IMG/VR virus record: IMGVR_UViG_3300042402_002711 | Span: 1 to 53,405 of that record | Strand: one strand, 5' to 3' | DNA length: 53,405 nucleotides | DNA from: a virus | Shown: positions 3,398 through 35,263 of the stretch, piece after piece | Position numbering within the stretch: position 1 is the first letter of the stretch | Layout: the number at the start of each line of letters is the position of its first letter | Notes under the pieces: generated by a model | Databases searched by the model: none | The model's input: only the letters and a program-made list of their open reading frames with translations | What the model was told of the DNA's origin: nothing | Position numbers and translations under genes: made by a program

Positions 3398-3398
3398 A

Positions 3399-4103
3399 TC
3401 AATTTTCCTTCCACATCATTTTATTGGCTACTTGATAAGAAGGATGTGTTCCCGCATCTGTCCACCAACCATCAACATAACTAAAAGAAACTTTATCTTT
3501 ACTTAAGTAAGAATTGATTACATCGCTGATTTCATACTCTCCTCTTTCTGAAGGAGATATTTCCTCTATTATTGAGAAAACACTATTATCAAATATGTAC
3601 ACTCCAATACAAGCAAATGCAGTCTCAACATCTTTCGGCTTTTCATCCAGGCGATAGAGTTTCCCATTATTGAATCTACCTATTCCATATCTGTGTCCGT
3701 CTGGAACAAACTTAAACAGCAAATGACATCCACTCTTAAAAGACTCAATATAGTTAGAAAGATTAAACTTGAACATATTATCACCAAGTATCACAAGACA
3801 ACTATCGCTTCCTACAAATTCTTTAGCATTAGCCAATGCACCAGCAACTCCATCTGGTTTATCTTGTGTCTTATATGTGATATTGCATTTGAAATCTGCT
3901 CCACTTTTAAGTAGCATAGAAAAATGACCAACATATTCAGGATTTGTCAATATTAATATGTCTTTGATTCCAGATTCAACCATTCTTTCTACACAATGCA
4001 TTACCATCGGCTTGCCGCCGACAGGAAGAAGATGTTTATTAACAGATATAGTCAAAGGATGAAGTCTAGAACCAGATCCGCCAGCGAGTATAACACCTTT
4101 CAT
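3399..4103 (-). CDS. Sugar-1-phosphate nucleotidyltransferase (RfbA-like)
   Basis: 234 residues from ATG 4103, which has GAGG 5 bases upstream; the longer in-frame extension overlaps the preceding gene and lacks a ribosome site. It joins a sugar-1-phosphate to an NTP to form an activated sugar. Motifs: GVILAGGSGSRLHPLT, the nucleotide-binding signature at residues 3-18, then NKHLLPVGGKPM, LVILGDNMF with the metal-binding Asp near residue 105, and EKP near 150. The compact C-terminal part ends with YVDGWWTDAGTHPSYQ. That matches RfbA/glucose-1-phosphate thymidylyltransferase-like enzymes, though it is shorter than RfbA (~290). The exact sugar and NTP cannot be read from sequence. Confidence 0.88.
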   Translation of the reverse strand: MKGVILAGGSGSRLHPLTISVNKHLLPVGGKPMVMHCVERMVESGIKDILILTNPEYVGHFSMLLKSGADFKCNITYKTQDKPDGVAGALANAKEFVGSDSCLVILGDNMFKFNLSNYIESFKSGCHLLFKFVPDGHRYGIGRFNNGKLYRLDEKPKDVETAFACIGVYIFDNSVFSIIEEISPSERGEYEISDVINSYLSKDKVSFSYVDGWWTDAGTHPSYQVANKMMWKEN

Positions 4104-4110
4104 AATTACC

Positions 4111-5124: not shown

Positions 5125-5125
5125 T

Positions 5126-6241: not shown

Positions 6242-7037
6242 GTTCCACCTTGAATACTGGTATTGGTATCATTTTATGATTGTTTCTTGTATTGTAATCT
6301 CTATAAATCTCTATAACTTTTATTTGTCTCTCCGTCATCTCTTTAAAGCATTTATCATTATCAATAGCCCACATAGCCCACTCCAACTCTTCATATGAAG
6401 CACCTATTTGAGATTCATCTGTCCTGTCATCTTCCCAAAGACCGTCTGTTGGCTTTGCCTCTATGATTTCCTTGCATACCCCCAATGAACGCCCCAATTC
6501 CCTCACTTGTGTCTTAGTTAAATCGGCAATAGGAGAAATATCCACACCACCATCACCATACTTTGTGAAGAAACCAATGCCAAAATCCTCGACTTTATTT
6601 CCCGTGCCTACCACTATTCCCGAGTTCACTCCAGCAATTCTATAAAGTGTAAGCATTCTCATGCGTGACTTCATGTTTGCGTTGGCTAGATCGTGATTAT
6701 GCTTCCGAGCATCTTTGGTTGCTTCCCCGAGTTTATTGGCAAGCATATCGTACTCATCGCTTAGGTCAACAGTTATCACCTTCACATTTTGGTGATTTTC
6801 GGAGAGGTACTTGCAATGCAATGCCGACAAGTTGGTATTGGTCTTGTTAGACTTGATGGGGATATTCACAACAATCGTCTCAATACCCGTCAATGCACAA
6901 AGCGTTGACACTACGGCTGAATCTATCCCGCCAGAAACACCTACAACCAATGTGGTTATGCCCTTGCCGTTAACATATTTTTTTATCCACTGTACAATGA
7001 GTCCGCTCAACAAATCGTATTCCAGAGAGTTCTTCAT
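6234..7037 (-). CDS. nadE: NH3-dependent NAD+ synthetase
   Basis: 267 residues, the usual size for the ammonia-dependent, single-domain form. It amidates nicotinic acid adenine dinucleotide to NAD+ with ATP. The ATP pyrophosphatase loop VVGVSGGIDSAV is at about residues 27-38. GTGNKVED and FFTKYGDGGVDISPI match NadE closely and separate it from asparagine-synthase-like or sugar amidotransferases. DLTKTQVRELGRSLGV completes the signature, and DGLWEDDRTDE follows. No glutaminase domain is present. The AAGGAA site before the start is good. In a sugar island it may supply NAD+ to the adjacent NAD-dependent dehydrogenase and epimerases, or restore NAD in infected cells; either is inference. Confidence 0.92.
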   Translation of the reverse strand: MKNSLEYDLLSGLIVQWIKKYVNGKGITTLVVGVSGGIDSAVVSTLCALTGIETIVVNIPIKSNKTNTNLSALHCKYLSENHQNVKVITVDLSDEYDMLANKLGEATKDARKHNHDLANANMKSRMRMLTLYRIAGVNSGIVVGTGNKVEDFGIGFFTKYGDGGVDISPIADLTKTQVRELGRSLGVCKEIIEAKPTDGLWEDDRTDESQIGASYEELEWAMWAIDNDKCFKEMTERQIKVIEIYRDYNTRNNHKMIPIPVFKVEHE

Positions 7038-7040
7038 AGA

Positions 7041-7835
7041 TTAGTTCCTTCTCAACTTAGCGTTGATAAGCATATGCCAACCGAATCTTTTCTCTAATGC
7101 TCTGAACATTTCCATTGGCATTGATTCAAACCAAGGATGCTTCACATACCGATTTTCCTTGTAGTACTTTATCTGATATGGAAATATATGATCTTGCTCT
7201 TTACTCAAGATCTCAAATCCATCAAATAGATCCTTAACACCATCATCGGTGTATGTTACTGCTATTGGACAACCGTATTGTGCTTCTGGTTGATCCAATC
7301 CATTCTCTATCATACAGTCCTTCCATGAATTTTTGGAGTAAACCATTACCTTCAGAAGGCTATCTTGATTCATGTATCTCTTGGCTTGCTCTAAGATACT
7401 CTTGGGATTTGGACTGTGATGAATAACACCAAATGAGTAGATCAAGTCGTATTCTTCTTGAGGCAAAAACTCAGAAAGTTCCTCAGCATTCCCCAAGTAA
7501 AACTTTCCATTCAGTCCATAGACTTCAAATCGCTTCCGAGTCAAATCCAATGATGCTTCGGACAGTTCTACTCCAGTGTATAGGGCACCATGCTTGGCAA
7601 ACAGAGTAGCCATAGTTCCTATACCACAACCTATCTCCAAAACCTTCTTACCTCTCCAACGATCAAATTCAGAAAAATCAACAATATGAGGCTCTACTCT
7701 CAGTTTCTTCTCTTGCACTTCCTCGAAGTAATCCAAAGTACCGATCTCTTTGTTAGAATGTCTGATATTGCATGGTCTAGATGACCAAAACTTCTCAACA
7801 TCTATGATGGTTGGTTGAGTCTGACTGTATTTCAT
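7041..7835 (-). CDS. SAM-dependent methyltransferase (class I)
   Basis: 264 residues from ATG 7835, which overlaps the fucosyltransferase stop as ATGA; an in-frame ATG 12 bases upstream (7847) is also possible. It carries the class I SAM-binding motif VLEIGCGIGTMATLFAKHG near residue 66, an acidic strand-2 end (GVELSE), and YDLIYSFGVIHHSPNP as motif III, all typical of UbiE/small-molecule methyltransferases. The C-terminal part (YYKENRYVKHPWFESM) does not match a known specificity domain. In this operon it probably methylates a sugar or a lipid-linked glycan, but the target is not visible. Confidence 0.82.
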   Translation of the reverse strand: MKYSQTQPTIIDVEKFWSSRPCNIRHSNKEIGTLDYFEEVQEKKLRVEPHIVDFSEFDRWRGKKVLEIGCGIGTMATLFAKHGALYTGVELSEASLDLTRKRFEVYGLNGKFYLGNAEELSEFLPQEEYDLIYSFGVIHHSPNPKSILEQAKRYMNQDSLLKVMVYSKNSWKDCMIENGLDQPEAQYGCPIAVTYTDDGVKDLFDGFEILSKEQDHIFPYQIKYYKENRYVKHPWFESMPMEMFRALEKRFGWHMLINAKLRRN

Positions 7836-8707
7836 AACTGTATCCATTCTTTGGGGTAGAAACCATCTCTCAACTGTGTACTGTTATCTAGGTGATAGTC
7901 TTGTGGGCACAGGACAATCTTGTTTGGGTTGGGGTTGAGATATGCCGCCCACCAACCGAATGAAGATGCGGGAGACAAGATGTTGTGGTGACAGAGCATT
8001 ATCCTTGTGAAGTCGGCAATTGGATCGTTTGAATCTGACACATGGTAAAGATCCCCGTCTCCGAAGTTCTTCTTCGCCCACCTTATGTCTTCAGAGTCAT
8101 CCCCAGTTCTACTCCCACCCACAAATATCAAGTACTTGTAGTTTCCATGACCGAATATCTGAGAGATCCTTGTCGAGCATTTCTTGAAATAACTACCCCA
8201 ACGATAACGAGTATCTAGGGGATCTTCCCCGAATAGTCCTATCTCACCATTCGTGCCGTCTGTAATATCACCCCTCCTGATGTGAAGGGAAACAACTTGC
8301 TTTCCACCAGATATCGAAGAGATGTAATCAAAGGCTTTGTCTATATGCTCTTCCTTTGGTGTCAACTCCTTACAGATCTGCGACTTGATATGTTCGAAGT
8401 ACTTTGTGTTTTGGAAAAATCCGAATAGATTCGTGTTGTCGCTCACCATTTCCATCTGTGGGTAGAAGAAGCCTGCTGGATTAGGCTCCACAACAGTGTT
8501 GAAATTCAACGCTGCTTCTGGGCTTACCCTGTTACACTCCAATCTAAACTCATCCAATAGACACCTTTGACCGTGCCAACTCTTGTTTGATAGATCGGGA
8601 ATAGTGGGGGATAGACCACGCTTGGCTGCTATCCCCTTCAAAGAAGCATATTGAAAGAGTTGGTTGCCTAAGCGACCATATCCACCTAATTCGGAGAAGT
8701 ATAGCAT
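7832..8707 (-). CDS. Glycosyltransferase family 11, alpha-1,2-fucosyltransferase-like
   Basis: 291 residues, normal for the family. The N-terminal GRLGNQLFQYASLKG (residues 11-25) and the GDP-fucose binding VVSLHIRRGD near residue 140 are the hallmarks of GT11 enzymes, which transfer L-fucose from GDP-fucose to galactose. The C-terminal SPASSFGWWAAYLN is also family-typical. The start has GGAG upstream and lies within the 3' end of the preceding glycosyltransferase gene (22-base overlap). No GDP-fucose synthesis genes (gmd, fcl) lie in the window. The donor may come from the host, or be the related GDP-L-galactose made by the nearby GDP-mannose 3,5-epimerase-like protein. Confidence 0.88.
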   Translation of the reverse strand: MLYFSELGGYGRLGNQLFQYASLKGIAAKRGLSPTIPDLSNKSWHGQRCLLDEFRLECNRVSPEAALNFNTVVEPNPAGFFYPQMEMVSDNTNLFGFFQNTKYFEHIKSQICKELTPKEEHIDKAFDYISSISGGKQVVSLHIRRGDITDGTNGEIGLFGEDPLDTRYRWGSYFKKCSTRISQIFGHGNYKYLIFVGGSRTGDDSEDIRWAKKNFGDGDLYHVSDSNDPIADFTRIMLCHHNILSPASSFGWWAAYLNPNPNKIVLCPQDYHLDNSTQLRDGFYPKEWIQL

Positions 8708-9663
8708 TCTTCACTCTCCATTTGATTTATCGTTGCTAATGTTCCTTCACCGTCCATCTCCAAGCAGTTATCGAACGCTCTATCCAACATTGGTTGATAC
8801 TCGTCGTAGTTGGCTAGGATTTGGTCTATCTTCTTCTTCATGTCGGGAATATCATCGAAGTATACAAATTGGTCTTCACCAAAGAAATCTTCTATGATGT
8901 TCCAGCGATCACGCTGAACCAATATCACACTTCTTCCATATGCTGCCTCTGCTGTACGACACTTGTATTGTGGAATGATTGGAACAGGTAAATCTACACC
9001 TTGGAACGCCTCATTCTTTTCCCAATCCTTGTACCTCTTGATGCTAGAGATATGTGCTTGAGTCAATGGACATTGATTGAAGACTATGCTGATCTTTGTG
9101 TTTGCAACCATCTGCATCTTTTCGTGGTGGGAAAGATTCACATCCGTTGTGTACTCATTTGGGTAGATGTAGGAGATCCTGCTATTGTACTCCTTTAGAA
9201 CCTTAGCCATATCTTGGTGATACTTCCCATGAATTCCGCCAAAATAACACACATCGTACTTCTTTGTGTAGTTCAACGGATATCCACCGTAGTCATTAGG
9301 TGATGCAAATGGATGCCAAATATAGCGATACCGAGTGTCTCCTGCAACATCTCTCAACCATTGAATAGTATATGGACAAATGGAGTAGATGCGATCAAAA
9401 TATCTAGTATAGTTTCCGTCTGGTTGCCAAGGAGTATTTCCGTCTTTCACGGGAGCATCACAGTTAAACTCGGTTGGCATCCATAAATTAAGAAGTATTT
9501 TCTCTTTACAACTAGAGAAATGATGTCTAAGATTTGCATTGAATAACGAGTTGTATCCGTAGAACAAAACCTTATCGGATTGATGCTTCGAAAATCTTGT
9601 TAGATTTATTCTAACTGTTGGACCATCTAAATAATCTCCACTCGGATCATTTACTATCTTCAT
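8686..9663 (-). CDS. Glycosyltransferase (GT-B-like, group 1 type)
   Basis: 325 residues from ATG 9663, selected because AAAGG lies 9 bases upstream; an earlier in-frame TTG/ATG pair has no ribosome site. The protein looks like a two-domain GT-B enzyme. An N-terminal half ends with IWHPFASP, then YDVCYFGGIHGKYHQ begins the second Rossmann-like domain. A late CRTAEAAYGRSVILVQRDR with EDQFVYFDD corresponds to the donor-binding region of group 1 (CgeB-like) transferases. The final helix DNCLEMDGEG also fits. Donor and acceptor cannot be determined. It follows the SDR gene after a 29-base gap. Confidence 0.65.
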   Translation of the reverse strand: MKIVNDPSGDYLDGPTVRINLTRFSKHQSDKVLFYGYNSLFNANLRHHFSSCKEKILLNLWMPTEFNCDAPVKDGNTPWQPDGNYTRYFDRIYSICPYTIQWLRDVAGDTRYRYIWHPFASPNDYGGYPLNYTKKYDVCYFGGIHGKYHQDMAKVLKEYNSRISYIYPNEYTTDVNLSHHEKMQMVANTKISIVFNQCPLTQAHISSIKRYKDWEKNEAFQGVDLPVPIIPQYKCRTAEAAYGRSVILVQRDRWNIIEDFFGEDQFVYFDDIPDMKKKIDQILANYDEYQPMLDRAFDNCLEMDGEGTLATINQMESEECYTSPN

Positions 9664-9692
9664 TGAGTTAAACCTTTCAATATTGCACATTA

Positions 9693-10538
9693 TCAAAATG
9701 ACATCTGTTTACAAATATCCCAAATACCATCTTTCAAACTGAACTCTGGACTCCATATTGCTTTGATATATGGATCAGGCTCATTCCTGATTCCTCTCTG
9801 AACAGAATCTTTATTTTCTGAACCTCTAATATTACTAACTTGGAAATATTCTCCAACAATTTTAGCAATATCTGCAATTTTTGTCCATTCAAAACTGGTA
9901 ATATGATATGGCTTTGACTTGTTCAAAGAATTGAAATTTTTTACAATAGCCATATGAGCCTTAGCACAGTCAAGAGCATGGAGAAATTGTCTCTCTTCAC
10001 TACCATCAGTCATCATCCTGATATTGCCATGTTCTTGTGCTTGCTTGATAAAGTCTGTAAGAACATGAGTTCTAATAGAATCGTGGTTGATCTCATTTCC
10101 ATAGACATTCCAATACTTTACACTCACCCCATTCATACCCTTAGATTCGGTATAGAATTCACCTAACCTTTTAAGAACTCCATAAGAAGAATGGTTCATG
10201 TTAGACATCTGTGATGAAGAAAATATGAAAGGTTTACCTGTTCTCTCAAGACCGTCGAAGACATTTTTCATTATCATTAAGTTGTTGTCAATAACATTCT
10301 TGTTCTCAAAATTACCAAGAAATTTAGATCCCCCAACATCAAAAGCCAAAAAGTGAACGAAGTCTGTCTCATTTAGACATTCATCAAACAAGGAATTAGA
10401 TGCTGGTGTCGGTTGACGAAGATCCTCTATTGGATTTCTTGCAATATCAAATTCCTGAACTTCTTCGCCAATAGAGCGCAAATAACCCACTAAATGCGTG
10501 CCGATCTGTCCACTAGAACCAAGAACCAAATGCTTCAT
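9693..10538 (-). CDS. NAD-dependent epimerase/dehydratase (extended SDR)
   Basis: 281 residues with AAGGAG upstream of the start. The dinucleotide-binding GSSGQIGTHL motif sits at residues 7-16, an active-site strand gives FIFSSSQMSNMN, and the catalytic Tyr-Lys pair is in SSYGVLKRLGE near residue 118. VKYWNVYGNE and RQFLHALDCAKAHMAI are standard for sugar-nucleotide epimerases and reductases. It starts 1 base after the FkbM-like gene and belongs to the aminosugar end of the island. Whether it is an epimerase, a dehydratase or a 4-ketoreductase cannot be resolved by eye. Confidence 0.82.
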   Translation of the reverse strand: MKHLVLGSSGQIGTHLVGYLRSIGEEVQEFDIARNPIEDLRQPTPASNSLFDECLNETDFVHFLAFDVGGSKFLGNFENKNVIDNNLMIMKNVFDGLERTGKPFIFSSSQMSNMNHSSYGVLKRLGEFYTESKGMNGVSVKYWNVYGNEINHDSIRTHVLTDFIKQAQEHGNIRMMTDGSEERQFLHALDCAKAHMAIVKNFNSLNKSKPYHITSFEWTKIADIAKIVGEYFQVSNIRGSENKDSVQRGIRNEPDPYIKAIWSPEFSLKDGIWDICKQMSF

Positions 10539-19472: not shown

Positions 19473-21203
19473 CTAGTTCGTGTATTCGACTAGAGCAGAG
19501 AAGTTGTTTCGCTTCTTGAACACTATTCGATTCTTGAACTTATCTCCCATTGATTCAGGGTTCTTGTGAGAAATAACAAAAACTCTCACATTACTATCTA
19601 TTGTCTTCAGAATGTCTAGGAAGGCATCTGTTGCCGAATCATCCAGAGAGCCATCTAAAATCTCATCTAAAATCAATAGATTGCAGTTCACGGAGTTCTT
19701 CTGTGAGGCAATGGCTCTCCATGCAAAGAGAAGAGCAAGATCAATTCTTCGTTTTTCTCCTTCTGAAAAACTCTCATAGGTAAACTCGTCTCGGTGACGG
19801 GATCGTATCTTCTCTTCAAAATTGTCATTCAGTTCAAAACTAACAAAGAAGTTCATCCGTGTAAGATAAGCATTGATGGTCTTGTTAATAACAGGAAGAT
19901 AGTGTGAGATAATACGCTTCTTGATTCCTGTATCTTTCAAAAGAATCGCTGCTGCATTATAAACAGCCGCAGTTTCTCCAGCATCACTCTTATTCTTATC
20001 AATATCTGTTTCCATAGCCTTAAACTTCTGGAGTTTCTCCTGTTCCGATACTTCGTCAGATCGGTCTTCGGAGATACGCTTGATTTCTGCTTGGAGTTGG
20101 CGGATATGTCTTTCTCCTGCCTCTCTGGATGAGAGGAGAGTATTGATTCTCCGCTGCTTCTCTTGAATCTCATCAAGGCTCTCCTTTGTTTTAGAGAGAG
20201 CATCCTGTGTCTCTGTGATTTTTTGTCCAATGTCATCCATGCCTCTTTTCATCTCGTCCATGCGAGATTTCTTTGCCTGAACTTGCGTTTCCTTGTGTTC
20301 AGCACAGATTCCTTGAAGGCAAGTAGGGCAAACATCGTTCTTTTCATAGAACGAAATTTCATTGGACAACGACTTCATATTTCCACGAATCTGAGTGCTT
20401 AGACTATTTAGTTTTGATAGCACAGATTCTTGTGTTTCTTTAGAGTTTCCAACAGAATTGAGAAGAGCATCTGCCTCTCCTTGAAGAGCCGTGATCCTCC
20501 CTGTGAGATCCTTCATCTCTGCTTCTGATGCTGCAATAGCCTGTTCCTTCTCCTCTATAAGACTATTGCTTCTATTCTTGAGCGAAAGTATAAACTTTGT
20601 CTGTATCTCTATCTTCTCACGAATCATAGCCAATCCATTCTCAAGATCACGCTGTTTTTCCTTGAGAGCAGATTGTCTTTCCTTCAGAAGAACATTCATC
20701 GTTGAAAAGATAGAGATATCCAAAAGATGTTCAACAATTGTACGACGATCTGCTGCCGTTAACTTCATAAACGGAACATAGTTCGTAGAACCCAATATGA
20801 CTACTTGGCAAAAGGACTTCTGATTGAATTTAAGAATCTGCTCTTCAAGAGTCTTCTGATAATCCTTGGCATTGGCACAGATATCTAGCAACTTTCCATC
20901 TTTGTGAATCTCAAAGACCTTTGGTGCTATACCACGACGAATATGGTACTGATGCCCACCAACAGAAAACTCAATCTCCACAAGGCAATCTTTTTCATTG
21001 ATAGAGTTTACCAACTGTGGGATATTGATATTTCGATAAGGCTTTCCAAAAAGCACAAAGGTGAGTGCGTCGAGAAGAGTGGTCTTCCCTGCGCCGTTCT
21101 CACCTGTGATTAGGGTTGTGTTGTGCCTCAACAGGTCAACCTCTGTAAAGGTATTCCCTGTGGATAGAAAATTACGCCAACGAATCTTTTCGAATGTAAT
21201 CAT
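19473..21203 (-). CDS. 46: Recombination endonuclease subunit gp46 (SbcC/Rad50-like)
   Basis: 576 residues (T4: 560). Walker A is TGENGAGKTTLLDALTFVLF near residue 34, a long coiled coil flanks a zinc-hook motif VCPTCLQGIC near residue 290, and Walker B is LLILDEILDG near 505 preceded by the signature FSEGEKRRIDLAL. With gp47 it forms the Mre11/Rad50-like complex that processes DNA ends for recombination-dependent replication. The start has no Shine-Dalgarno; TTTTTATACC sits directly before it. Unlike in T4, two other genes separate it from 47. Confidence 0.96.
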   Translation of the reverse strand: MITFEKIRWRNFLSTGNTFTEVDLLRHNTTLITGENGAGKTTLLDALTFVLFGKPYRNINIPQLVNSINEKDCLVEIEFSVGGHQYHIRRGIAPKVFEIHKDGKLLDICANAKDYQKTLEEQILKFNQKSFCQVVILGSTNYVPFMKLTAADRRTIVEHLLDISIFSTMNVLLKERQSALKEKQRDLENGLAMIREKIEIQTKFILSLKNRSNSLIEEKEQAIAASEAEMKDLTGRITALQGEADALLNSVGNSKETQESVLSKLNSLSTQIRGNMKSLSNEISFYEKNDVCPTCLQGICAEHKETQVQAKKSRMDEMKRGMDDIGQKITETQDALSKTKESLDEIQEKQRRINTLLSSREAGERHIRQLQAEIKRISEDRSDEVSEQEKLQKFKAMETDIDKNKSDAGETAAVYNAAAILLKDTGIKKRIISHYLPVINKTINAYLTRMNFFVSFELNDNFEEKIRSRHRDEFTYESFSEGEKRRIDLALLFAWRAIASQKNSVNCNLLILDEILDGSLDDSATDAFLDILKTIDSNVRVFVISHKNPESMGDKFKNRIVFKKRNNFSALVEYTN

Positions 21204-21240
21204 GGTATAAAAATCACAAAACTAACTTACTTGAATGACT

Positions 21241-21774
21241 TTACATATCGCCGTCATTAGTAGCAGGATTCTCTCCCTTATAGTTATCTTCAACATATGT
21301 GAAGAACTTCTTCTTCTCTTCAGGAGTCATTTCAGCAATGCTAGACTTTCCAAATTTCTTTAGTGCTGCTTGAAAAAATTTCTTGTATCCATCTGACTCC
21401 TCGGTCATTTCCTCTGCCCCTTTGTCAGCCTCTTTTGAGAGATTTTTTGCTCCTTTTTTGACTGTGGCAAAAACAGCAGGATTGCTTGTGATGATGTTGA
21501 TAAGAGACATCAGCATATTGATAAGATCAGATCTAACAGAGACATTCTTCATTGCCTTTTCTGGATCTTTTAGTGCTGTGCGAACTCGGGCAACTCTACC
21601 AGAATCAACAAGACCTGAACGCATAAGCATCGTTACACGATTGGGGTCTTCTAGTGCTTCTACGAGTTCTTGTGCAGCAAACTCCATGTCCTCTGCAAGA
21701 GTAGACGATACTTCCTTCTTCAGAATTCGGTTTACTTGCTCATTAAGATTACGATACTTTTCGATCTTATCCAT
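21241..21774 (-). CDS. Unknown helical protein, paralogue of the ParB-like neighbour's N-terminus
   Basis: 177 residues from ATG 21774 with AAGGAG upstream. It is mainly helical. Residues about 45-120 (MLMRSGLVDSG, ALKDPEKAM, LINMLMSLINIITSNPAVFA) align by eye with residues ~48-115 of the protein encoded upstream, so the two share a domain. The C-terminal FGKSSIAEMTPEEKKKFFTYV resembles the ending of small conserved proteins of marine T4-like phages whose function is unknown to me. It could be an internal virion or regulatory protein. It stands between genes 47 and 46, 33 bases after its larger partner. Confidence 0.65.
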   Translation of the reverse strand: MDKIEKYRNLNEQVNRILKKEVSSTLAEDMEFAAQELVEALEDPNRVTMLMRSGLVDSGRVARVRTALKDPEKAMKNVSVRSDLINMLMSLINIITSNPAVFATVKKGAKNLSKEADKGAEEMTEESDGYKKFFQAALKKFGKSSIAEMTPEEKKKFFTYVEDNYKGENPATNDGDM

Positions 21775-21807
21775 TTTCTTCTCCTTGTGGTGTGTTTTCA
21801 ATGTGTA

Positions 21808-23550
21808 TTATGCATACATTGAATATTTTGCTAATTCTTCTTTGAGAATTTTCTCTATTGTTTTTGTAAGAGACTCATGCAGTTGTTCTCCTGCTGTTGG
21901 TTCTCTTTCTTCTTTCTTTGTTTCTTGTGGATTTTCTGCTGCCTTTCCGCTCTTTCTCTCTAAACCGTACTCATTTCCCCACTTGTTTGATTCACCAACC
22001 AGTTCTTCCATTTCCATGTCAACCACAGTGGTATTGACAGTGAATGGCTCTTTGCGGCCATCCATAAGGTCAAGAGTTGTAATAGCAGCCCAACGGTGGT
22101 GTCCGTCAAGCACATAACCATCTTTAGAAACAATCAAAGGTTCAAGCAAGCCCTCATCTCCACAGTTTCCATTTCCACAGTTACCAGAGGTATCCTTGCA
22201 TTGCTTTTGCTTTGTAAGAGGATCAAGACCACCACAAGAGTCTAGTAAACGCTTTGTTCTACCTGCTTTTAATCCATTAACCATTCCCATGACTTTCTCA
22301 CCAACCAAATCCATTTGGGTAGCCTTCATTTCAGATGCAGCCATAGACTTACCCTCATCAACCTTCACACCCTTGTTCTTCAGATGCTCAAGGAATTTCT
22401 TTTCAGCATTTGCCTCTCCATCCTTCACCGGAAGATGATTTGGATCTGAAGGAGGCAACTGGCTATCTTTTTCTGCTTGTGTGCCTGGTAATATTGCAGT
22501 CTTTAGTTGTGGCATTTTCTTTCTTGGTATTCCAAGGTTATCACCACAGTAGAGATTTGTTCCAGGCACTGTTACCTTACAAAGATCGAAATCTGGAGCA
22601 TTGCCTTGTTCTTTATTTACTCTATCTTCTGCTGCTTTCTTTGCAGCACTTTTTTCCATACCCCCTGCTTCAAATTCTTTCTGATATTTCTTTGCTGCCT
22701 TGAATCTATCTTGCATTACTTGTGCGACCTTATCCAATCTTGTTGCTATTTTCTTCTCCTGTTTGGGATCAGAACCCATAGCACCTTCGGTAGAATCAGG
22801 ACCATCAAACTCGGTGCTTGCTTTCTTTGAAACAATAGGTTTTGCTGCACCAGTCTGCACATTCTTCTTTACTGCTTGTTTGACTGCTTCTTTTCCTGCT
22901 TGTGCCTTTTCTGCCTTTGCCTGTGCTGCGCTTATTTCGCCTTTAGCATAAGCAGTTGCCTTTTCTTTTGCAGTTTCTCCATATTCAGCCTTTGACCAAT
23001 AGACAGATTCTCCTGCGCTATTCTTTCCAGCCCAAGAGTTTTCTGTTTCCCATACAGATCCTGGTTCATGTTTTGCCCCTTCTCCAAGAACACGGCTTAT
23101 TCTTGCGATTCTACGAGCATCATCTGTAGCACCAAGAGTATTTCTGTACTCTCTGATGGTACTTACAAACTCTTCATAAACTTCAGACTTATTTCTTTTC
23201 ATATCCGATTCCTCTTTGCTCTCATCTAGCAGAAAATTTCTGAACCTTGCCCATGCAGCAGGATCAGATACCACTATGTAGTTTAGTGTTTTTATCATTA
23301 GGTCATAGAGTTGATTTCTTATCTTTGGAGAGACACCAAACCGTTTAGGGTCTTTCAAAACATTTGTCATCTGATACACTACTTCATCTGGAACTAGCCC
23401 TGCCCGAGCCAATTGCAAGAGCCTTGGATAATTCTTGATTTCATACTCTGGATTTGTCTCTGGTGCTGGAGTCTGCGCCTCAACCAATGTCATATCCTGC
23501 CTCAAATGAGACAGAATACTTCTAATTTCTTTACTAATTTCTTTATCCAT
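21808..23550 (-). CDS. Large protein with ParB-like (DGHHR) domain
   Basis: 580 residues from ATG 23550 with AGGAG upstream. The N-terminal ~130 residues are helical (LLQLARAGLVPDEV, LNYIVVSDPAAWA) and shared with the next gene. An Ala/Lys-rich, probably coiled, middle (about 195-330) follows. Then comes a Cys-containing region (DLCKVTVPGTNLYCGDNLG), then IPRKKMPQL and EMKATQMDLVGEKVMGMV. The C-terminal PLIVSKDGYVLDGHHRWAAI is a ParB/sulfiredoxin-like motif. This string of elements recurs in large phage polyvalent proteins. Eight Cys lie between about residues 450 and 485 (SCGG, QCKD, NCGNGNCGD). A DNA-binding, nuclease or phosphate-transfer role is possible; none is shown. A CCTACATA motif precedes the gene. 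Confidence 0.75.
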   Translation of the reverse strand: MDKEISKEIRSILSHLRQDMTLVEAQTPAPETNPEYEIKNYPRLLQLARAGLVPDEVVYQMTNVLKDPKRFGVSPKIRNQLYDLMIKTLNYIVVSDPAAWARFRNFLLDESKEESDMKRNKSEVYEEFVSTIREYRNTLGATDDARRIARISRVLGEGAKHEPGSVWETENSWAGKNSAGESVYWSKAEYGETAKEKATAYAKGEISAAQAKAEKAQAGKEAVKQAVKKNVQTGAAKPIVSKKASTEFDGPDSTEGAMGSDPKQEKKIATRLDKVAQVMQDRFKAAKKYQKEFEAGGMEKSAAKKAAEDRVNKEQGNAPDFDLCKVTVPGTNLYCGDNLGIPRKKMPQLKTAILPGTQAEKDSQLPPSDPNHLPVKDGEANAEKKFLEHLKNKGVKVDEGKSMAASEMKATQMDLVGEKVMGMVNGLKAGRTKRLLDSCGGLDPLTKQKQCKDTSGNCGNGNCGDEGLLEPLIVSKDGYVLDGHHRWAAITTLDLMDGRKEPFTVNTTVVDMEMEELVGESNKWGNEYGLERKSGKAAENPQETKKEEREPTAGEQLHESLTKTIEKILKEELAKYSMYA

Positions 23551-23576
23551 CAGTTCTCCTAGCCATATTCTCACTA

Positions 23577-23584
23577 TATGTAGG
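23577..23584 (-). promoter_or_regulatory. Late-promoter-like motif CCTACATA before ParB-like gene
   Basis: CCTACATA lies in the 37-base gap between the gp47 stop and the ParB-like gene, ending 26 bases before its ATG. It would let this gene and its paralogue be expressed late, separately from the surrounding early genes. Motif evidence only. Confidence 0.35.
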
Positions 23585-23587
23585 ATT

Positions 23588-24625
23588 TCATAGGCTTAGG
23601 CTGTCTGTATACAGATCACGGATCACTGTTTTTAGTTTTTCTTTGTCTATGGTAATTTCCATACCATCTATTGTCTCATTTATAAGTTCAACCGTTCCCT
23701 TTGACATATCAATCCGTTCTTCCCCGAACTCCTCCTCTGCGTGTTCCTCTACTATCGAAAGGTTTGCCACTCCAGCGGCTATCAGCCCCTCACAGAGGCT
23801 TCCAAAGGCGATCTCGTCCCGTTTCCCTGTCACGACGATACGCAGATAAGAGTCCTTGTATCGGGCAAGATCAAGCCCACTATAATTGCTCTCCGTATCG
23901 TTGTAGAACAACTTATGGTACATCTTATGTGGATTTTCTACAAATTCCAACCCGAGAGTCTTCGTGTCAAAGACATGAAATCCCTTTCTCTCGTTTACAT
24001 CCGAAAAATTGAGGTCATACTGTGTACCAAGATAGTGCACATTTCCCCTGTACTGTCGGCAATGGAAGTGACCAGACATTACAAGATCAAACTTATGGAG
24101 AATATTGTCAGACATTCCTCCATTATGGTTGATGCCTCGCATAACCTCATAGCCGTCCAGTTCTAGATGCCCTACAAGCACTGGTGCAACAGAGGAGTCC
24201 AATGCCTCTTCACACTCTTCACTATTCTCACGATTCACCCAAGGAAGAAAAAGAACAGAACAACCATCAAAATCTACGGTTGTTGGAGTTTCGTAAAGGT
24301 GAATATGGTTGTGAAATAGTTCACGAAGAGAATTGAGATTGTTTGTATTCTTCCAATAGGTGTCGTGGTTTCCTGTAATGCAGTGTACCTCTACACCCAT
24401 CTCCTCTAGAGGAGTAAAGAATCTCTTCTTTACGAGTGAAAGAGTATTGAAATTGACATACTTTCTGCGGTCAAGCAGATCACCCATGTGAATAACTGTG
24501 GTTATGCCATGTTCCTTTAGGTAAGGAAAGAATATCTCCTCAAAAAACTTGAAAGAGTATTCCAAGAATAAAGGAGAATCATTACGGACACCAAAATGGG
24601 TATCAGAGATTACTGCGATCTTCAT
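23588..24625 (-). CDS. 47: Recombination endonuclease subunit gp47 (SbcD/Mre11-like)
   Basis: 345 residues (T4: 339). It is a calcineurin-type phosphoesterase: AVISDTHFGVRND at the N-terminus, IHMGDLLDRRKY near residue 45, CITGNHDTYW near 82, and histidines in VLVGHLELDGYE and VMSGHFHCRQYRG. These supply the two-metal nuclease site. With gp46 it resects DNA ends. The start (AGGAAACCG before ATG) lies inside the end of gene 55 (23-base overlap), giving the operon order 55-47. T4 has the same neighbourhood. Confidence 0.96.
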   Translation of the reverse strand: MKIAVISDTHFGVRNDSPLFLEYSFKFFEEIFFPYLKEHGITTVIHMGDLLDRRKYVNFNTLSLVKKRFFTPLEEMGVEVHCITGNHDTYWKNTNNLNSLRELFHNHIHLYETPTTVDFDGCSVLFLPWVNRENSEECEEALDSSVAPVLVGHLELDGYEVMRGINHNGGMSDNILHKFDLVMSGHFHCRQYRGNVHYLGTQYDLNFSDVNERKGFHVFDTKTLGLEFVENPHKMYHKLFYNDTESNYSGLDLARYKDSYLRIVVTGKRDEIAFGSLCEGLIAAGVANLSIVEEHAEEEFGEERIDMSKGTVELINETIDGMEITIDKEKLKTVIRDLYTDSLSL

Positions 24626-28144: not shown

Positions 28145-28693
28145 TCAATCGAGAGATTCAATATTTACGGTTTTATATGCAAAATTACAGGACACCATCA
28201 TTGGATCTATCTCGGTCATACCGGAATTAAATTCAAAAGACATGAGACTTGTAGGGTAACATCGGCTAAATGTAAACTTTTTCTTTAATTTCTTTGCGTT
28301 GCTGTATATTAGCACAATTATTTCTGAATAAAGATCGGCTGCTGTAACTCCTCCTTCGTTTTCGGAATTTGGTGTTATTGTAGTCATCCAATCGTAAATT
28401 TCTTTCCAGTTATCCATGTTTTCGTCTATGGTGAAATTTACGACAATTTGATCGGATATATCAAGGGCGGATGGTATTGATGTTCTTGGAAATCCAGCAA
28501 AGCCAACATCCATAGAGTTGATGTTTATCGAAGGTATGCTTACAGTTTGTATGAAATGTGTAATCTTTGGTAGTCTGGGAATTACCACTCTAAAAGAAGT
28601 AGGACTAAGGTAGTTTGGTGTTGAAAAATATTTATTCGGTCCTCTTGTTAGAGGAGCATAGTCAGAAAAATCAGTGTATGTTGGTTCAGCCAT
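28145..28693 (-). CDS. 3: Tail completion and sheath stabilizer gp3
   Basis: 182 residues (T4 gp3: 176). SPTSFRVVIPRL, FIQTVSIPSINI, NFTIDENMDNWKEIYDWM and the later TFSRCYPTSLMSFEF share the pattern of gp3 and of the tail-tube fold. gp3 caps the tail tube and last sheath ring. Its place between gene 23 and uvsY is the cyanophage-type order. A tail-tube (gp19) reading is the alternative because the folds are related, but real gp19 genes lie near 34-35 kb. GGGAG precedes the start. Confidence 0.75.
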   Translation of the reverse strand: MAEPTYTDFSDYAPLTRGPNKYFSTPNYLSPTSFRVVIPRLPKITHFIQTVSIPSININSMDVGFAGFPRTSIPSALDISDQIVVNFTIDENMDNWKEIYDWMTTITPNSENEGGVTAADLYSEIIVLIYSNAKKLKKKFTFSRCYPTSLMSFEFNSGMTEIDPMMVSCNFAYKTVNIESLD

Positions 28694-28787: not shown

Positions 28788-30206
28788 TCAGTTGGTGAAA
28801 CCGTGTAGGTTTGTTACTTGGAAGATGCGGTAGTAGGAGTTTGTACGAGCCTCTACACCGTTTGTATAGTTTAGAACAGATGTGGAGGTTGTAGCAAACG
28901 GATTTGCTGCAATACCGTAACGAGTCTTGAAGCCGATCTTTGGCTGGAAGGTCGTTGGGTCGATTGCACGAACCATTTGTAGTGGAACATATGGGCAGTA
29001 GAAGAAGCCTGCATCATATTGTGAGGTTCCCTTATAACCTACTACACAGAAGTCGGTTCCTGCTGGTGCATATGGGTCGATATAGACCTTAAAGCGACCG
29101 ATTGTTCCGATGAATGTGGTTCCTGTATCGTCTACATCCTTGCCGAATGCGCCTGACTGATTGGACTCAAGGAGTCCTGTCATAGAGAGGGCAGCAGCAA
29201 CATCGGAAGAGCAGATAAGAACATTGCCCTTGCCACGACGAGTTTCCTTTGCGATAACATTGGCTTCACGCTCAATCTGGAAGAACAGACCACGGAAGCG
29301 TTCTGCACTCCAACGACCGTCTGATTCGGTCTGAATATCGAATGCACCACTTGTTGCCATGCCCTGATTAGTAAGAGCACCAAGTTTGGCAATCTGATAG
29401 ATTGTACGAACAACTTCACGATTGATTTCAGAAAGAACTTCGTTCGTGAGGATGTTTGCCAACTCTGTTTCAACATCAAGTCCGTGAACAGCCTTGAGGT
29501 CTTGGGCGATTTCAGAAGAGTACGATGCCTGTAGTGCACGGGAACGAGCAACAACAGATGTACGCTCAATTGAGAAGCCCATCTCTGCAAAGCCATTTCC
29601 ACTTCTAGCATCTTCCATATACTGCGTAGTGGAAGCGATACCAGAGTATGCACTTATGCCCGTTACACCGTCTGTATCATTTACAAGTAAATTGAGTGCA
29701 ATCTGTGCACTGGTGAAGTTTTGAGGGACTCCTGTACCGGATGTCCAACCGAATCCGTAAGTACCACCGAAGCCAGGACCTGTACCTGAGTAGTGGGTCA
29801 GAGGTTCATCCAAGCCCATTGCTTCTGTTTGTGAAGTGCTTGGGTTGCTTCCTGTGTTGTTGTAACGGCTCTTCATGCAGAAGATAAGGCCAGTTGGGGC
29901 TGTCATTGGCTGAACGCCGCAGACATCATATGCAATGAGATTTGGCATTGCACGACGAACGAGTGAGATCATCACTGGATCGAATGCTGCAAGTGCTCCG
30001 TTGCCGCTTGGATTTGCAAGGTTGTTTACGCCACCAAGTACTGCATTGTATGGTGCAGCCTCGTTGAGTGCGTTTTGCTGATTCTCAAGCATGAGGGCAG
30101 TAACGCTCTTGCGGTAGGGATCTTTGATTGCACCAAGTTCGGAATGCTCAAGAATTGGCTTCCACTTCTTTAGTGCTTGTTCTGTTAAGAATGCTGTCGT
30201 GTCCAT
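28788..30206 (-). CDS. 23: Major capsid protein gp23
   Basis: 472 residues. The start resembles T4 (LKKWKPILEHSELGAI), and FDPVMISLVRRAMPNLIAYD with VCGVQPMTAPTGLIF is the gp23 signature. SRALQASYSSEIAQDLKAVH and NREVVRTIYQIAKLG continue it. The precursor is likely trimmed near residue 45-55 by gp21 during maturation; LENQQNALNE is the kind of E-rich site used, but the exact cut is not readable. The protein forms the hexamers of the head. An AAAGGAG site, a TACATA motif and a strong terminator frame the gene. Confidence 0.97.
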   Translation of the reverse strand: MDTTAFLTEQALKKWKPILEHSELGAIKDPYRKSVTALMLENQQNALNEAAPYNAVLGGVNNLANPSGNGALAAFDPVMISLVRRAMPNLIAYDVCGVQPMTAPTGLIFCMKSRYNNTGSNPSTSQTEAMGLDEPLTHYSGTGPGFGGTYGFGWTSGTGVPQNFTSAQIALNLLVNDTDGVTGISAYSGIASTTQYMEDARSGNGFAEMGFSIERTSVVARSRALQASYSSEIAQDLKAVHGLDVETELANILTNEVLSEINREVVRTIYQIAKLGALTNQGMATSGAFDIQTESDGRWSAERFRGLFFQIEREANVIAKETRRGKGNVLICSSDVAAALSMTGLLESNQSGAFGKDVDDTGTTFIGTIGRFKVYIDPYAPAGTDFCVVGYKGTSQYDAGFFYCPYVPLQMVRAIDPTTFQPKIGFKTRYGIAANPFATTSTSVLNYTNGVEARTNSYYRIFQVTNLHGFTN

Positions 30207-31307: not shown

Positions 31308-31344
31308 CTCACAGTTTTGACAGAAAATCTCTGAAAACTGTGAG
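31308..31344 (-). terminator. 11-base inverted repeat at the 3' end of gene 21
   Basis: CTCACAGTTTT and AAAACTGTGAG pair perfectly across a 15-base loop that itself can form a 4-base stem (CAGA/TCTG). The structure spans the last codons and stop of gp21 and is followed by ATTATATATATG, so it lacks a true T-run. A terminator, mRNA-stability or processing hairpin are all possible. Confidence 0.45.
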
Positions 31345-31959
31345 AGCGTTCTCTTCAAGTTTACGGGAAGATGACGCTTTTATTACTTTTTTGTACTCTG
31401 CTATGATTTGTTCTTTAATGATGCCGTTTTCCCATACCCACTGCTTGCCTTCCATGATGCCGTTTACAAAAGCATTTGGTGCAGAAGGATCTGCAACAAT
31501 ATCAACAGTTGAGAGCATAAAATCATCTTGAACATAGTTTACGCCGTTCTTTTCTTGCAAAGAACCCATGCCTCTGCTTGATACTCCAAGACGGCATCCT
31601 TCATCCAATAGCGATTTGGCGATTTTACCCATCTCTGTATTTGTAAGAATTTTAGCCTTACCGTATACCTCTTTACCCTCCACACGCAAATCTTTGATAA
31701 GATGTGATACTCTTTCAAGATTTACTGTTGGTCCTTCTGGATGTCCCAATTCTCCCATCGCTCTATTCTTTTTGACAAATTCTTCATTATAACGCTTCAC
31801 TTCATTTGAAAGAATCTCTTGAGGGTATACTCTACCGTTTCTATTTTTTACTTCAGACTGCATGAATATGCCTTCAATGAAGTACTGCTTTTCTCCTTTT
31901 TCGGATGCCTCCGTTAAGAAGTTGATTGTATCGTGGTTCGTTTCGATAATAAGAAACAT
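31309..31959 (-). CDS. 21: Prohead protease gp21
   Basis: 216 residues (T4: 212). It is a serine protease of the herpesvirus-assemblin type: YFIEGIFMQSEVKNRNGRVY at the start, the catalytic histidine in MGELGHPEGP near residue 72 and the catalytic serine in LGVSSRGMGSL near 128. DIVADPSAPNAFV matches the family. It cuts the core and capsid precursors during head maturation. The gene starts on the stop of the small core gene (TAATG), with AAAAAGG before it. Confidence 0.95.
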   Translation of the reverse strand: MFLIIETNHDTINFLTEASEKGEKQYFIEGIFMQSEVKNRNGRVYPQEILSNEVKRYNEEFVKKNRAMGELGHPEGPTVNLERVSHLIKDLRVEGKEVYGKAKILTNTEMGKIAKSLLDEGCRLGVSSRGMGSLQEKNGVNYVQDDFMLSTVDIVADPSAPNAFVNGIMEGKQWVWENGIIKEQIIAEYKKVIKASSSRKLEENALTVFRDFLSKL

Positions 31960-34117: not shown

Positions 34118-34687
34118 TTATGAATTGAACTGTCCAGGAATTGTAGGAAATAAACCTAGACCACCTCCACCGCCACCTCCAGCACCCCCGCCGCCTCCAC
34201 CTTGTACGGTATGATATGAATAATTAAATGTTACTTGATACTCAAGAGGTGCAGTCTGTTCATCGAAGGATAGATCAACAGATGCAATACTTGTAGGAAA
34301 AGCACCAAAAAGAATGTAAGTCATGGATGGAGAGTTGTTATTCTTTAGTAGTTTAACAGTTATATCGACCATTTGGTCTGGTTTTCTCAATCCGCTTTCT
34401 GCATTGTCTAGTTCGTTCATCCAAGCCTCAAGCCTATTACGAACACCCATTTCCTCTGTTTCCATAATAGTCACAGTCCATTCAGAGAAGGTTCTCTGTC
34501 CTGGTACTTTGATTTTTCTTCCCCTGTATGGAACTTCAATCATTCCCAATTCTGATGCAGGAAGTTGGGTTCCTTTTCCGTTAAATTCTATGTCTGGCAA
34601 CTTGTTTGGAATAGAAATAGAGTACAGATTAGTTTTGGCTATACCCCTTTTGACAGTGCTTAATATTTCTGATATGGGTTTAGGCAT
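34118..34687 (-). CDS. Tail tube gp19 paralogue with poly-glycine tail
   Basis: 189 residues. It follows the tail-tube pattern (IEVPYRGRKIKVPGQRTFSE, WTVTIMETEEMGVRNRLEAW, FGAFPTSIASVDLSFDEQTA) and is clearly related to the next gene upstream, sharing a 54-base identical DNA block. After the common end (YHTV) it adds a glycine run (QGGGGGGAGGGGGGGLG) and LFPTIPGQFNS. It may be a second tail-tube subunit, a tube-end protein or an accessory that decorates the tube. It follows its partner after 72 bases with a hairpin between. Confidence 0.85.
   Translation of the reverse strand: MPKPISEILSTVKRGIAKTNLYSISIPNKLPDIEFNGKGTQLPASELGMIEVPYRGRKIKVPGQRTFSEWTVTIMETEEMGVRNRLEAWMNELDNAESGLRKPDQMVDITVKLLKNNNSPSMTYILFGAFPTSIASVDLSFDEQTAPLEYQVTFNYSYHTVQGGGGGGAGGGGGGGLGLFPTIPGQFNS
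34160..34201. repeat. Glycine-codon tract in the gp19 paralogue
   Basis: A CCNCCN-rich run on the plus strand encodes an almost pure glycine stretch (GGGGGGAGGGGGGG) on the minus strand. It ends the common tail-tube domain and is absent from the neighbouring gp19. Confidence 0.85.
34238..34291. repeat. 54-base identical block shared by the two gp19-like genes (copy A)
   Basis: Bases 34238-34291 are identical to 34799-34852. They encode the SIASVDLSFDEQTAPLEY segment in both proteins. The rest of the genes is much more different, so the block has been homogenised or is under unusual constraint. Confidence 0.9.
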
Positions 34688-34759: not shown

Positions 34760-35263
34760 TCAAGAAACCTTATGGTATGTGTATTGGAATGTAACGGAAT
34801 ACTCAAGAGGTGCAGTCTGTTCATCGAAGGATAGATCAACAGATGCAATACTGCTTGGGAATGCTCCGTAAAGAGTATAGACGATTGAAGGGGTCGAATT
34901 GTCAGGCTTCAGAAGAGTGACTACTATTGTTGATAGAGCAGCAGTGTTTCTCTTTATTTGATCTTCCGAATCCATTACAGATATCCAGCGTTCAAATTGC
35001 TTACGCACAGCCATATCTGCGGTTTCCATGACAGTGACTGTCCACTCTGCAAATGTACGCTCCCCAGGAATCTTTACTTTTCTTCCTTTGTATGGTATTT
35101 CCATCATATTGATATCTGCGCTGGGAAGTTGTGTTCCCTTTGCACGAATATCAAGTCCTGGTACATTTACTGCTCCACCCTCTGGTCTGATTTCCAGTTT
35201 GTAGAGGTTTGTTTTTGCAGGATTTTTAAATCCCGAAATGAATCTATCTAGTGATTCTGCCAT
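34760..35263 (-). CDS. 19: Tail tube protein gp19
   Basis: 167 residues (T4: 163). FKNPAKTNLYKLEI, MEIPYKGRKVKIPGERTFAE, WTVTVMETADMAVRKQFERW and LYGAFPSSIASVDLSFDE match the family. Rings of it form the inner tube through which DNA passes. It directly follows sheath gene 18 as in T4 (19-base gap) and is the more standard of the two neighbouring copies, without the glycine tail. Ribosome site AGAGAGG. Confidence 0.92.
   Translation of the reverse strand: MAESLDRFISGFKNPAKTNLYKLEIRPEGGAVNVPGLDIRAKGTQLPSADINMMEIPYKGRKVKIPGERTFAEWTVTVMETADMAVRKQFERWISVMDSEDQIKRNTAALSTIVVTLLKPDNSTPSIVYTLYGAFPSSIASVDLSFDEQTAPLEYSVTFQYTYHKVS
34799..34852. repeat. 54-base identical block shared by the two gp19-like genes (copy B)
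   Basis: Second copy of the identical block, in the standard gp19 gene. Direct repeats of this length could also recombine and delete the intervening 560 bases, which include the hairpin. Confidence 0.9.

What the first reader, a model, noticed from the sequence alone, without database searches (positions are those of the whole stretch)
21808..23550. Cys-rich ParB-like polyvalent protein between the 46 and 47 nuclease genes
The SbcCD-like pair 46/47 is normally adjacent or close; here it is split by a 580-residue protein with a DGHHR ParB-like motif, an MPQL/KATQ element, and eight cysteines just before the motif. ParB-like domains in phage proteins can act as CTP-binding switches or nucleases. 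It has its own late-type motif although its neighbours are early genes.
Basis: partly seen in the sequence, partly recalled or inferred. Interest (0 to 1): 0.55.

Follow-up and report, generated by a model that had tools for sequence, protein, structure and literature searches.

The report
Capsid-delivered ParB-fold protein of T4-like phage
A gene wedged between two DNA-repair genes of a T4-like virus of bacteria looks like a protein packed inside the virus head, trimmed at both ends and probably injected with the DNA, carrying an optional enzyme-like module of the ParB/sulfiredoxin fold whose chemistry is unknown.

Summary
The gene is real: P580, 21808-23550(-), 580 aa, sits with a sister gene (P177) between gp47 and gp46. 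It has six cysteines, not eight. Residues 309-545 are a widespread phage module with a predicted ParB/sulfiredoxin-type fold (AlphaFold2 pLDDT 81; 29 of 30 listed structural matches with Z of 5 or more are ParB/Srx proteins, one is uncharacterised). Its motif DGHHRWA is that of the serine kinase SerK, not of ParB CTPases or DdrB. New here: P580 looks like a T4-type internal head protein. Among 50 window ORFs, [LI]xEA within the first 65 residues occurs only in capsid protein gp23, prohead protease gp21, P580 and P177. In window plus eight relatives [LI]xE is kept 9 of 9 with a varying middle residue. A second such site, LxE|S, precedes the C-terminal tail (5 of 5), as in T4 Alt. The ParB module is missing from the same carrier in five contigs. 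A promoter-like TACATAY, shared with gp23 and gp18, precedes P580 in all nine. Best reading: capsid-packaged, gp21-trimmed, injected effector with optional nucleotide-binding cargo. Packaging, injection and catalysis are inferred, not shown.

The parts
21808..23550 (-). P580: 580-aa carrier protein with ParB/Srx-fold module
   Evidence: ORF; 99% identical copy L003; orthologues L127, L129
23479..23550 (-). predicted N-terminal propeptide, residues 1-24, ending LVE|A
   Evidence: [LI]xE in 9 of 9 N-termini, shuffles at most 7 of 9; [LI]xEA in first 65 aa only in gp23, gp21, P580, P177 of 50 ORFs
23221..23445 (-). conserved N-domain (residues 36-110), paralogous to P177
   Evidence: BLASTP E 4e-8; alignment A8; fold unknown
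21946..22626 (-). ParB/Srx-fold module, residues 309-535
   Evidence: 79-sequence alignment, AF2, fold searches
22507..22581 (-). conserved Cys pair and MPQ segment, residues 324-348
   Evidence: C324 and C335 each in 78 of 79, MPQ in 79 of 79
22153..22254 (-). four-Cys insertion, residues 433-466 (C439, C451, C458, C463)
   Evidence: present in window, L003, L004; absent in L127, L129; low confidence in the model
22093..22107 (-). DGHHR motif, residues 482-486
   Evidence: 79 of 79, but the collection was selected by this motif
21811..21873 (-). predicted C-terminal propeptide after LHE|S, residues 560-580
   Evidence: LxE|S in 5 of 5 proteins that keep this tail
23575..23582 (-). promoter-like element TACATATA, 32 nt upstream of P580
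21241..21774 (-). P177: sister gene with a related N-domain and a C-terminal KKFF motif
23588..24625 (-). gp47 (SbcD-like)
19473..21203 (-). gp46 (SbcC-like)
28788..30206 (-). gp23 major head protein, carries LNE-49|A
31309..31959 (-). gp21 prohead protease, carries LTE-17|A

Best explanation
P580 is an internal head protein of a T4-like phage. It is made from its own promoter, drawn into the prohead core, and cut by the phage's gp21 protease after LVE-24 and probably after LHE-559. That leaves a mature protein of about 535 residues packed with the DNA and injected at infection. The conserved N-domain and tail are the carrier; the middle part is cargo. The cargo is a ParB/Srx-fold module with a SerK-type DGHHRWA nucleotide pocket and an almost invariant Cys pair, most likely a nucleotide-binding enzyme acting on host or competing nucleic acids or nucleotides early in infection. 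Shown by sequence: protein, paralogy, fold prediction, cleavage-type motifs, shared promoter-like element, absence of the cargo in relatives. Inferred: packaging, cleavage, injection, catalysis, target.
For: [LI]xEA within the first 65 residues occurs in 4 of 50 window ORFs: gp23, gp21, P580, P177; beyond residue 65 it occurs 7 times in 13,601 positions. [LI]xE just before PAxET in 9 of 9 N-termini (window and 8 relatives) with x = V,T,H,S,K,Q,L,H,Q and A next in 8; 20,000 shuffles gave a mean of 1.9 and a maximum of 7. gp23 and gp21 of relative L127 keep INE|A and ITE|E. T4 Alt is cut at ITE-6 and LTE-619 (PMC5694885, passages); P580 has LHE|S 21 residues from its end, L149 has LNE|S. ParB module present in window, L003 (near-identical), L004, L127, L129; absent in L128, L148, L149, L151, L153. 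N-domain 83% and tail 80% identical to L127, module 53%. TACATAY 25-37 nt upstream of P580 in window and 8 of 8 relatives (L149 from a TTG start), also before gp23, gp18 and a gp19-like gene in the window, and gp22 and gp23 in L144. ParB/Srx fold. Module gene next to gp21 in L125, two genes from it in L013 and L058, between gp17 and gp20 in L029 and L123.
Against: No proteomics: presence in virions is untested. The gene sits among recombination genes, not in the head operon. TACATAY also precedes regA, is missing before gp20, gp21, gp22 and two gp19-like genes of the window, and was chosen after seeing it. The shuffle test ignores that the nine sequences are related. P177's site in the aligned position is followed by D or E, not A. 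No similarity to T4 IPI-III or Alt was found in Pfam or PHROGs. Across 51 module proteins of other phages LxEA near the start is only 7, against 8 of 209 neighbours (p 0.014). Own T4-type head markers were found near the module gene in only 6 of 75 loci, all of them pieces of at most about 15 kb. Catalysis of the module is unknown.
Confidence: 0.62

Rival explanations
1. P580 is an intracellular DNA-metabolism partner of gp46/gp47, for example an NTP-gated clamp or nuclease loaded at DNA ends, and the LxE motifs are incidental.
For: Position between gp47 and gp46; some ParB/Srx domains are NTPases or nucleases (PMC5512222 passages).
Against: The ParB module is missing in 5 relatives that keep gp46 and gp47; cleavage-type sites are conserved at both ends; own promoter-like element; module genes of some other phages lie near head genes.
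Confidence: 0.13
2. P580 is a structural or scaffold-associated head protein whose ParB-fold part is inactive and serves only assembly.
For: Prohead-type sites; proteins with weak similarity to P177's end stand next to gp21 elsewhere.
Against: DGHHRWA (by selection) and the upstream Gln are in 79 of 79; the module is absent in 5 relatives; among 60 module proteins one each is fused to ADP-ribosyltransferase, zeta toxin and 2H-type domains.
Confidence: 0.13
3. The module is a SerK/SbnI-like small-molecule kinase, delivered or not, changing host serine or nucleotide pools.
For: Best PDB sequence matches are 1vk1 and SerK over DGHHRWAG (E about 0.05); the SerK profile hits P580 at 0.017 and L113 at 0.0058; hhalign 93.8% over 20 columns.
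Against: Bit score 14.3 against a cut-off of 380. By spacing, SerK's Glu30 is replaced by an invariant Gln (equivalence inferred, alignment weak there). The matches do not reach SerK's C-terminal half.
Confidence: 0.12

Closest known systems
T4 Alt and internal proteins IPI-III
   Same: short N-terminal propeptide removed by gp21; Alt is cut after ITE and, at its C-terminus, after LTE (PMC5694885); accessory genes that vary between phages (PMC12373910)
   Different: no sequence similarity found; cargo is a ParB/Srx module, not an ADP-ribosyltransferase; gene lies between gp47 and gp46
P1 DdrB and DdrB-like ParB polyvalent proteins
   Same: ParB/Srx fold in a protein reported as processed and packaged in a phage head (PMC5512222)
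   Different: DdrB has ESGNGRTMG where DGHHRWA would be, profile comparison 0.7%; no metallopeptidase found here
SerK free serine kinase (5x0b; 1vk1)
   Same: ParB/Srx fold (Z 7.2, rmsd 3.6, 85-92 aligned) and the identical DGHHRWA motif
   Different: Gln in place of Glu30 by spacing; no match to the SerK C-terminal half
ParB/Noc CTPases
   Same: fold (Z 7.0-7.3)
   Different: GHHR instead of GERR; no HTH and no Pfam ParB match
DGHHR ParB toxin domains of polymorphic toxins
   Same: same motif, predicted metal-binding active site (PMC3482391)
   Different: no direct comparison made; here inside a phage carrier

Membership tests
T4-type internal (ejection) head proteins | N-terminal propeptide ending at a gp21-type [IL]xE site | tested here: met
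   sequence only, cleavage not shown
T4-type internal (ejection) head proteins | present in the virion and injected | not testable with these tools
   needs proteomics of a cultured relative
T4-type internal (ejection) head proteins | late expression with head genes | tested here: inconclusive
   TACATAY shared with gp23, gp18, a gp19-like gene and (L144) gp22, but also regA, and not before every head gene
T4 Alt family | ADP-ribosyltransferase sequence | tested here: not met
   no Pfam or PHROG match
ParB/sulfiredoxin superfamily | fold | tested here: met
   AF2 pLDDT 81, pTM 0.78; 29 of 30 VIA rows with Z of 5 or more are ParB/Srx proteins (1vk1 counted by sequence), one is Atu1540; Foldseek top PDB E 0.012, none under 0.001
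ParB/sulfiredoxin superfamily | conserved arginine in the pocket motif | tested here: met
   R486 of DGHHR in 79 of 79, collection chosen by the motif
canonical ParB CTPase | catalytic Glu of GERR (E78 of B. subtilis) | tested here: not met
   His by motif position; residue role from PMC8494293
canonical ParB CTPase | HTH and ParB_N Pfam profile | tested here: not met
   PHROG ParB-like families only at E 0.02 and 0.14
DdrB-like ParB | sequence profile of the family | tested here: not met
   hhalign with P1 DdrB residues 56-200: probability 0.7; a single DdrB sequence, no family profile
SerK free serine kinase | DGHHRWA motif | tested here: met
SerK free serine kinase | NCBIfam equivalog cut-off | tested here: not met
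   14.3 bits against 380
SerK free serine kinase | Glu30 at the active site | tested here: inconclusive
   Gln412 invariant at nearly equal spacing; alignment there is weak
sulfiredoxin | catalytic Cys in the GCHR motif (recalled) | tested here: not met
   GHHR in 79 of 79, collection chosen by the motif
polyvalent proteins | several effector domains in one delivered protein | tested here: inconclusive
   one recognised domain here; homologues carry S78 protease (5), cytidylyltransferase (3), ART (1), zeta toxin (1) of 60

The most novel reading that the evidence does not exclude
The gp47-gp46 gap of this phage clade is a cargo bay. A two-ended carrier (conserved N-domain and C-tail, each bordered by a prohead-protease site) holds exchangeable injected effectors. 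One effector is a new ParB/Srx enzyme class that combines a SerK-like DGHHRWA pocket, Gln in place of SerK's Glu, His in place of ParB's catalytic Glu, and an almost invariant Cys pair.
Probability: 0.3. Interest if true: 0.75.

Novelty: new variant of a known kind. Interest (0 to 1): 0.52.

Why it matters
It would place a widespread phage module with no known function (PHROG 2859) among capsid-delivered effectors in at least one clade, and give a simple marker, paired LxE sites around an optional cassette, for finding injected proteins in uncultured T4-like phages. T4's internal proteins turned out to be inhibitors of GmrSD restriction enzymes (PMC12373910, passages), so such cargo is a likely place to find new anti-defence or takeover functions.

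Tried and rejected
Eight cysteines: six. VbhA antitoxin Pfam match at E 0.01, 16.3 bits against a cut-off of 25.9, over 22 residues of the Lys/Ala-rich linker: taken as chance. PADLOC: no match for P580; weak matches for P177 (HNH 0.00084, LmuB, PDC-S11), not pursued. Rfam: none in 21000-24000. Fold of the N-domain: model too poor (pLDDT 52), no claim and no fold search. Equating Q412 with SerK E30 rests on spacing and a weak profile match; the thought that Q412 matches a Gln of ParB's QPR motif rests on recall and on the title of PDB 7bnr only. A wish to show that module proteins in general start with a capsid signal gave weak support: LxEA in 7 of 51 against 8 of 209 neighbours (p 0.014), LxE in 31 of 51 against 78 of 209 (p 0.003). 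Plasmids: one weak match (E 0.4). ParB proteins in virion proteomes: only the listings of two searches were seen, no paper opened.

A clean count of how many module genes lie in head operons was not made. Of 287 neighbour ORFs listed, 102 were scanned as one set, and that answer shows 25 of 53 families; it also holds families unrelated to heads (nuclease 13, methyltransferase 4, RNA ligase 3, groEL 2). Own T4-type head markers (gp17, gp20, gp21, gp23) ring in 6 of 75 loci by phmmer and in 11 loci by tblastn, where only loci with two or more matching queries were printed.

Full report
What was checked. The window is a 53,405-base virus record from IMG/VR. It carries a T4-type head and tail module, with gp17, gp18, gp20, gp21, gp22 and gp23 at 28.8-39.0 kb, and gp55, gp47, gp46, uvsW and uvsY at 19.5-28.1 kb. 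All of these are on the minus strand. The reported gene is P580, 21808-23550, 580 residues from the ATG at 23550. A near-identical contig (L003, 99%) has the same intact gene. Between the window and L004 the last 184 codons show dN 0.080 and dS 1.29, a ratio of about 0.06, so the protein is under selection (dS is near saturation). The cysteines number six, at 324, 335, 439, 451, 458 and 463.

The gene pair. In seven other phages looked at, gp47 and gp46 overlap in one (YB07), are separated by one small gene of 76-91 residues in five (S-CAM1; S-RIM2, Lw1, S-WAM1, QD01), and by four genes including a homing endonuclease in T2. Here the gap is 2,384 bp and holds P580 and P177. The two share an N-terminal domain (BLASTP E 4e-8; also found by the genome search). 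The domain's fold could not be modelled (pLDDT 52).

The C-terminal module. Residues 309-545 match a very common phage module. Because they were chosen by the motif, its conservation is built in. Outside the motif, MPQ and R343 are in 79 of 79, C324 and C335 in 78 of 79 each, Q412 in 79 of 79 and G529 in 79 of 79. The four cysteines C439-C463 sit in an insertion of about 34 residues found in the window, L003 and L004 but not in the orthologues L127 and L129; one further sequence of the 79 (L119) has residues in that stretch. PHROG 2859, function unknown, is the named relative (E 1.7e-12); two ParB-like partition PHROGs match weakly (E 0.02 and 0.14).

Fold. AlphaFold2 on 41 sequences gave pLDDT 81 and pTM 0.78. 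Foldseek against the PDB has no match under E 0.001, but its first 13 rows are ParB, Noc, sulfiredoxin or Atu1540 chains. In the second look by VIA-align 2, 30 listed rows have Z of 5 or more: 28 are named ParB, Noc, KorB, PadC, sulfiredoxin, SerK or SbnI, one is 1vk1 (an archaeal protein with SerK's DGHHRWAG stretch) and one is the uncharacterised Atu1540. Plant sulfiredoxin has Z 7.6 (rmsd 3.5, 83 aligned), Noc 7.3, SerK 7.2, ParB 7.0, SbnI 6.3. These values are middling, and rows within 1 are tied, so the fold class is supported but not a closer kinship. Against predicted viral structures 21 matches pass E 0.001, several named ParB/Sulfiredoxin (best E 4e-18). By sequence the best solved relatives are 1vk1 and SerK, only over DGHHRWAG (E 0.05; hhalign 93.8% over 20 columns; NCBIfam SerK E 0.017 with 14.3 bits against a cut-off of 380). 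Pfam's ParB_N profile finds nothing in three records holding relatives even at E 10, and Pfam finds no ParB family in the 41 aligned members. P1 DdrB, the type member of the polyvalent ParB family, does not match (probability 0.7; its stretch reads ESGNGRTMG).

Catalytic residues. ParB's CTP hydrolysis needs E78 and E111 (PMC8494293, passages). The module has GHHR where ParB has GERR. SerK's Glu30 lies 39 residues before its DGHHR; the module's invariant Gln lies 38 residues before in 34 of the 70 sequences counted and 32 to 42 before in the others, apart from the window, where the insertion makes it 70. So neither known catalytic Glu seems kept, and the reaction, if any, is open.

Prohead-protease signatures. 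T4 gp21 cuts after Glu; the published sites seen here are ITE-6 and LTE-619 of Alt (PMC5694885, passages), and it removes 65 residues from gp23 (PMC9958956, passages). I therefore listed [LI]xEA within the first 65 residues of 50 minus-strand ORFs of the window taken as genes. Four have it: gp23 (LNE-49|A), gp21 (LTE-17|A), P580 (LVE-24|A) and P177 (LVEA at 37). Allowing G or S at the next position adds a UDP-glucose dehydrogenase and gp17. Beyond residue 65 LxEA occurs 7 times in 13,601 positions. In relative L127 gp23 has INE|A and gp21 ITE|E. Nine P580-type N-termini (window, L127, L129, L128, L148, L149, L151, L152, L153; L003 left out as near-identical, L004 lacks this end) all carry [LI]xE within six residues of the PAxET block, with x being V, T, H, S, K, Q, L, H, Q, and A next in eight (R in L149). 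Shuffling gave a mean of 1.9 and never more than 7 of 9 in 20,000 trials; the shuffles ignore relatedness. For L149 the shorter of two possible starts was used there; a TTG start does not change the site. At the other end LHE|S stands 21 residues before the end in window, L004, L127 and L129, and LNE|S 28 before the end in L149. This two-ended pattern is that of T4 Alt. For P177-type proteins the aligned candidate is LAE, INE, LQE, LME or IQE, followed by D or E, which is weaker.

Cargo and carrier. Searches with P580, P177 and the N-domain gave ten contigs of this clade. The ParB module is present in the window, L003, L004, L127 and L129. It is absent in L128, L148, L151 and L153, where the N-domain runs into a P177-type domain in one protein, and in L149, where a protein of 237-245 residues keeps the N-domain and the tail ending KKELAKYSMYA but has no module. 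L152 is cut by the contig end. Between window and L127 the N-domain (25-110) is 83% and the tail 80% identical, the module 53% and the linker 42%. So the ends are the constant part and the module is optional.

Promoter-like element. TACATA[CT] occurs 9 times on the coding strand, 7 of them 21-58 nt upstream of a gene start: gp18 (start taken at 37289), gp23, a gp19-like gene, P580, regA, the 1,094-aa gene and the 236-aa gene; the other strand has 6, where no genes are read (binomial 6e-8, but the motif was picked after seeing it). It is missing before gp20, gp21, gp22 and two other gp19-like genes of the window. In relatives it precedes P580 in 8 of 8, at 25-37 nt from the starts used (L149 from its TTG), and gp22 and gp23 in L144 and a gp19-like gene in L148 and L152. 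The copy before the 236-aa gene lies inside uvsW coding sequence and may be codon constraint. I read it as a candidate late promoter; regA is an exception.

Elsewhere. Of 60 module-bearing proteins scanned against Pfam (of 75 listed), 5 carry an XkdF-type S78 protease, 3 a cytidylyltransferase, and one each an ADP-ribosyltransferase, zeta toxin or 2H-type phosphoesterase domain. Among 102 ORFs next to module genes PHROGs finds minor head protein (5), head maturation proteases (4, 3, 1, overlapping models), portal (1, 1), but also a 'nuclease' (13) and other families. The module gene stands next to gp21 in L125, two genes from it in L013 and L058, between gp17 and gp20 in L029 and L123, and a few genes from gp17 in L044 and L046.

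Literature. Internal proteins of T4 are packaged with an N-terminal signal and injected, and Ip1-3 inhibit different GmrSD enzymes (PMC12373910, passages). ParB-fold proteins bind CTP, ATP or GTP and occur as fusions in phages (PMC12704722, passages). DGHHR marks ParB toxin domains predicted to be nucleases (PMC3482391, passage). A search for DGHHR together with phage found only that paper. The listings of eight searches show no paper on this carrier; most listed papers were not opened.

Verdict. The protein is best read as a T4-type internal head protein with an optional ParB/Srx-fold cargo. That it is packaged and cut is well supported by sequence but not shown. What the module does is open: a nucleotide-binding enzyme is likely, with nuclease, kinase or transferase all possible.

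Noticed in passing
window 23575-23582, 30248, 37344, 28714, 14845 (-): TACATA[CT] stands 21-58 nt before several genes, including gp23 and gp18, and may be this clade's late promoter in place of TATAAATA.
   Followed up: partly
window 21241-21774(-), L148, L153: P177 ends in a motif FF....KKFG...EM..EEKKKFF.YV; weaker relatives of it by phmmer sit beside gp21 in L013, L058, L125, and by tblastn in a gene after the portal of Pseudomonas phage Voja-6.
   Followed up: partly
L127 8001-8531, L129 3197-3778, L149 6731-7486, L151 6001-7179: P177-type domains of relatives end in EF-hand or dockerin-like repeats (GGQKKLDVNKNGKVDGADLAALRAGKKK; likeness judged by eye) instead of the KKFF motif.
   Followed up: no
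L153 7110-7964: The gp47-gp46 gap of this relative also holds a 284-aa gene that looks like an exported trypsin-like serine protease (ITASHC, GDSGGP); not run against any library.
   Followed up: no
window 28145-28693, 34118-34687, 34760-35263 (-): Three genes match the tail tube PHROG 45, so gp19-like genes are in three copies.
   Followed up: no
L024, L035, L046: Large DGHHR module proteins begin with a cytidylyltransferase-like stretch (GRFQPFHKGH; Pfam CTP_transf_like in 3 of 60, members not named there).
   Followed up: no
L012, L017, L043, L057, L107: Many module proteins of other phages begin with a short helix-like stretch and a block like VVKNKKTGNVYVV...DP.KHDKPT, a possible second carrier domain.
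   Followed up: no
window 1050-10538(-): A run of genes matching glycosyltransferase, nucleotide-sugar epimerase and UDP-glucose dehydrogenase PHROGs.
   Followed up: no
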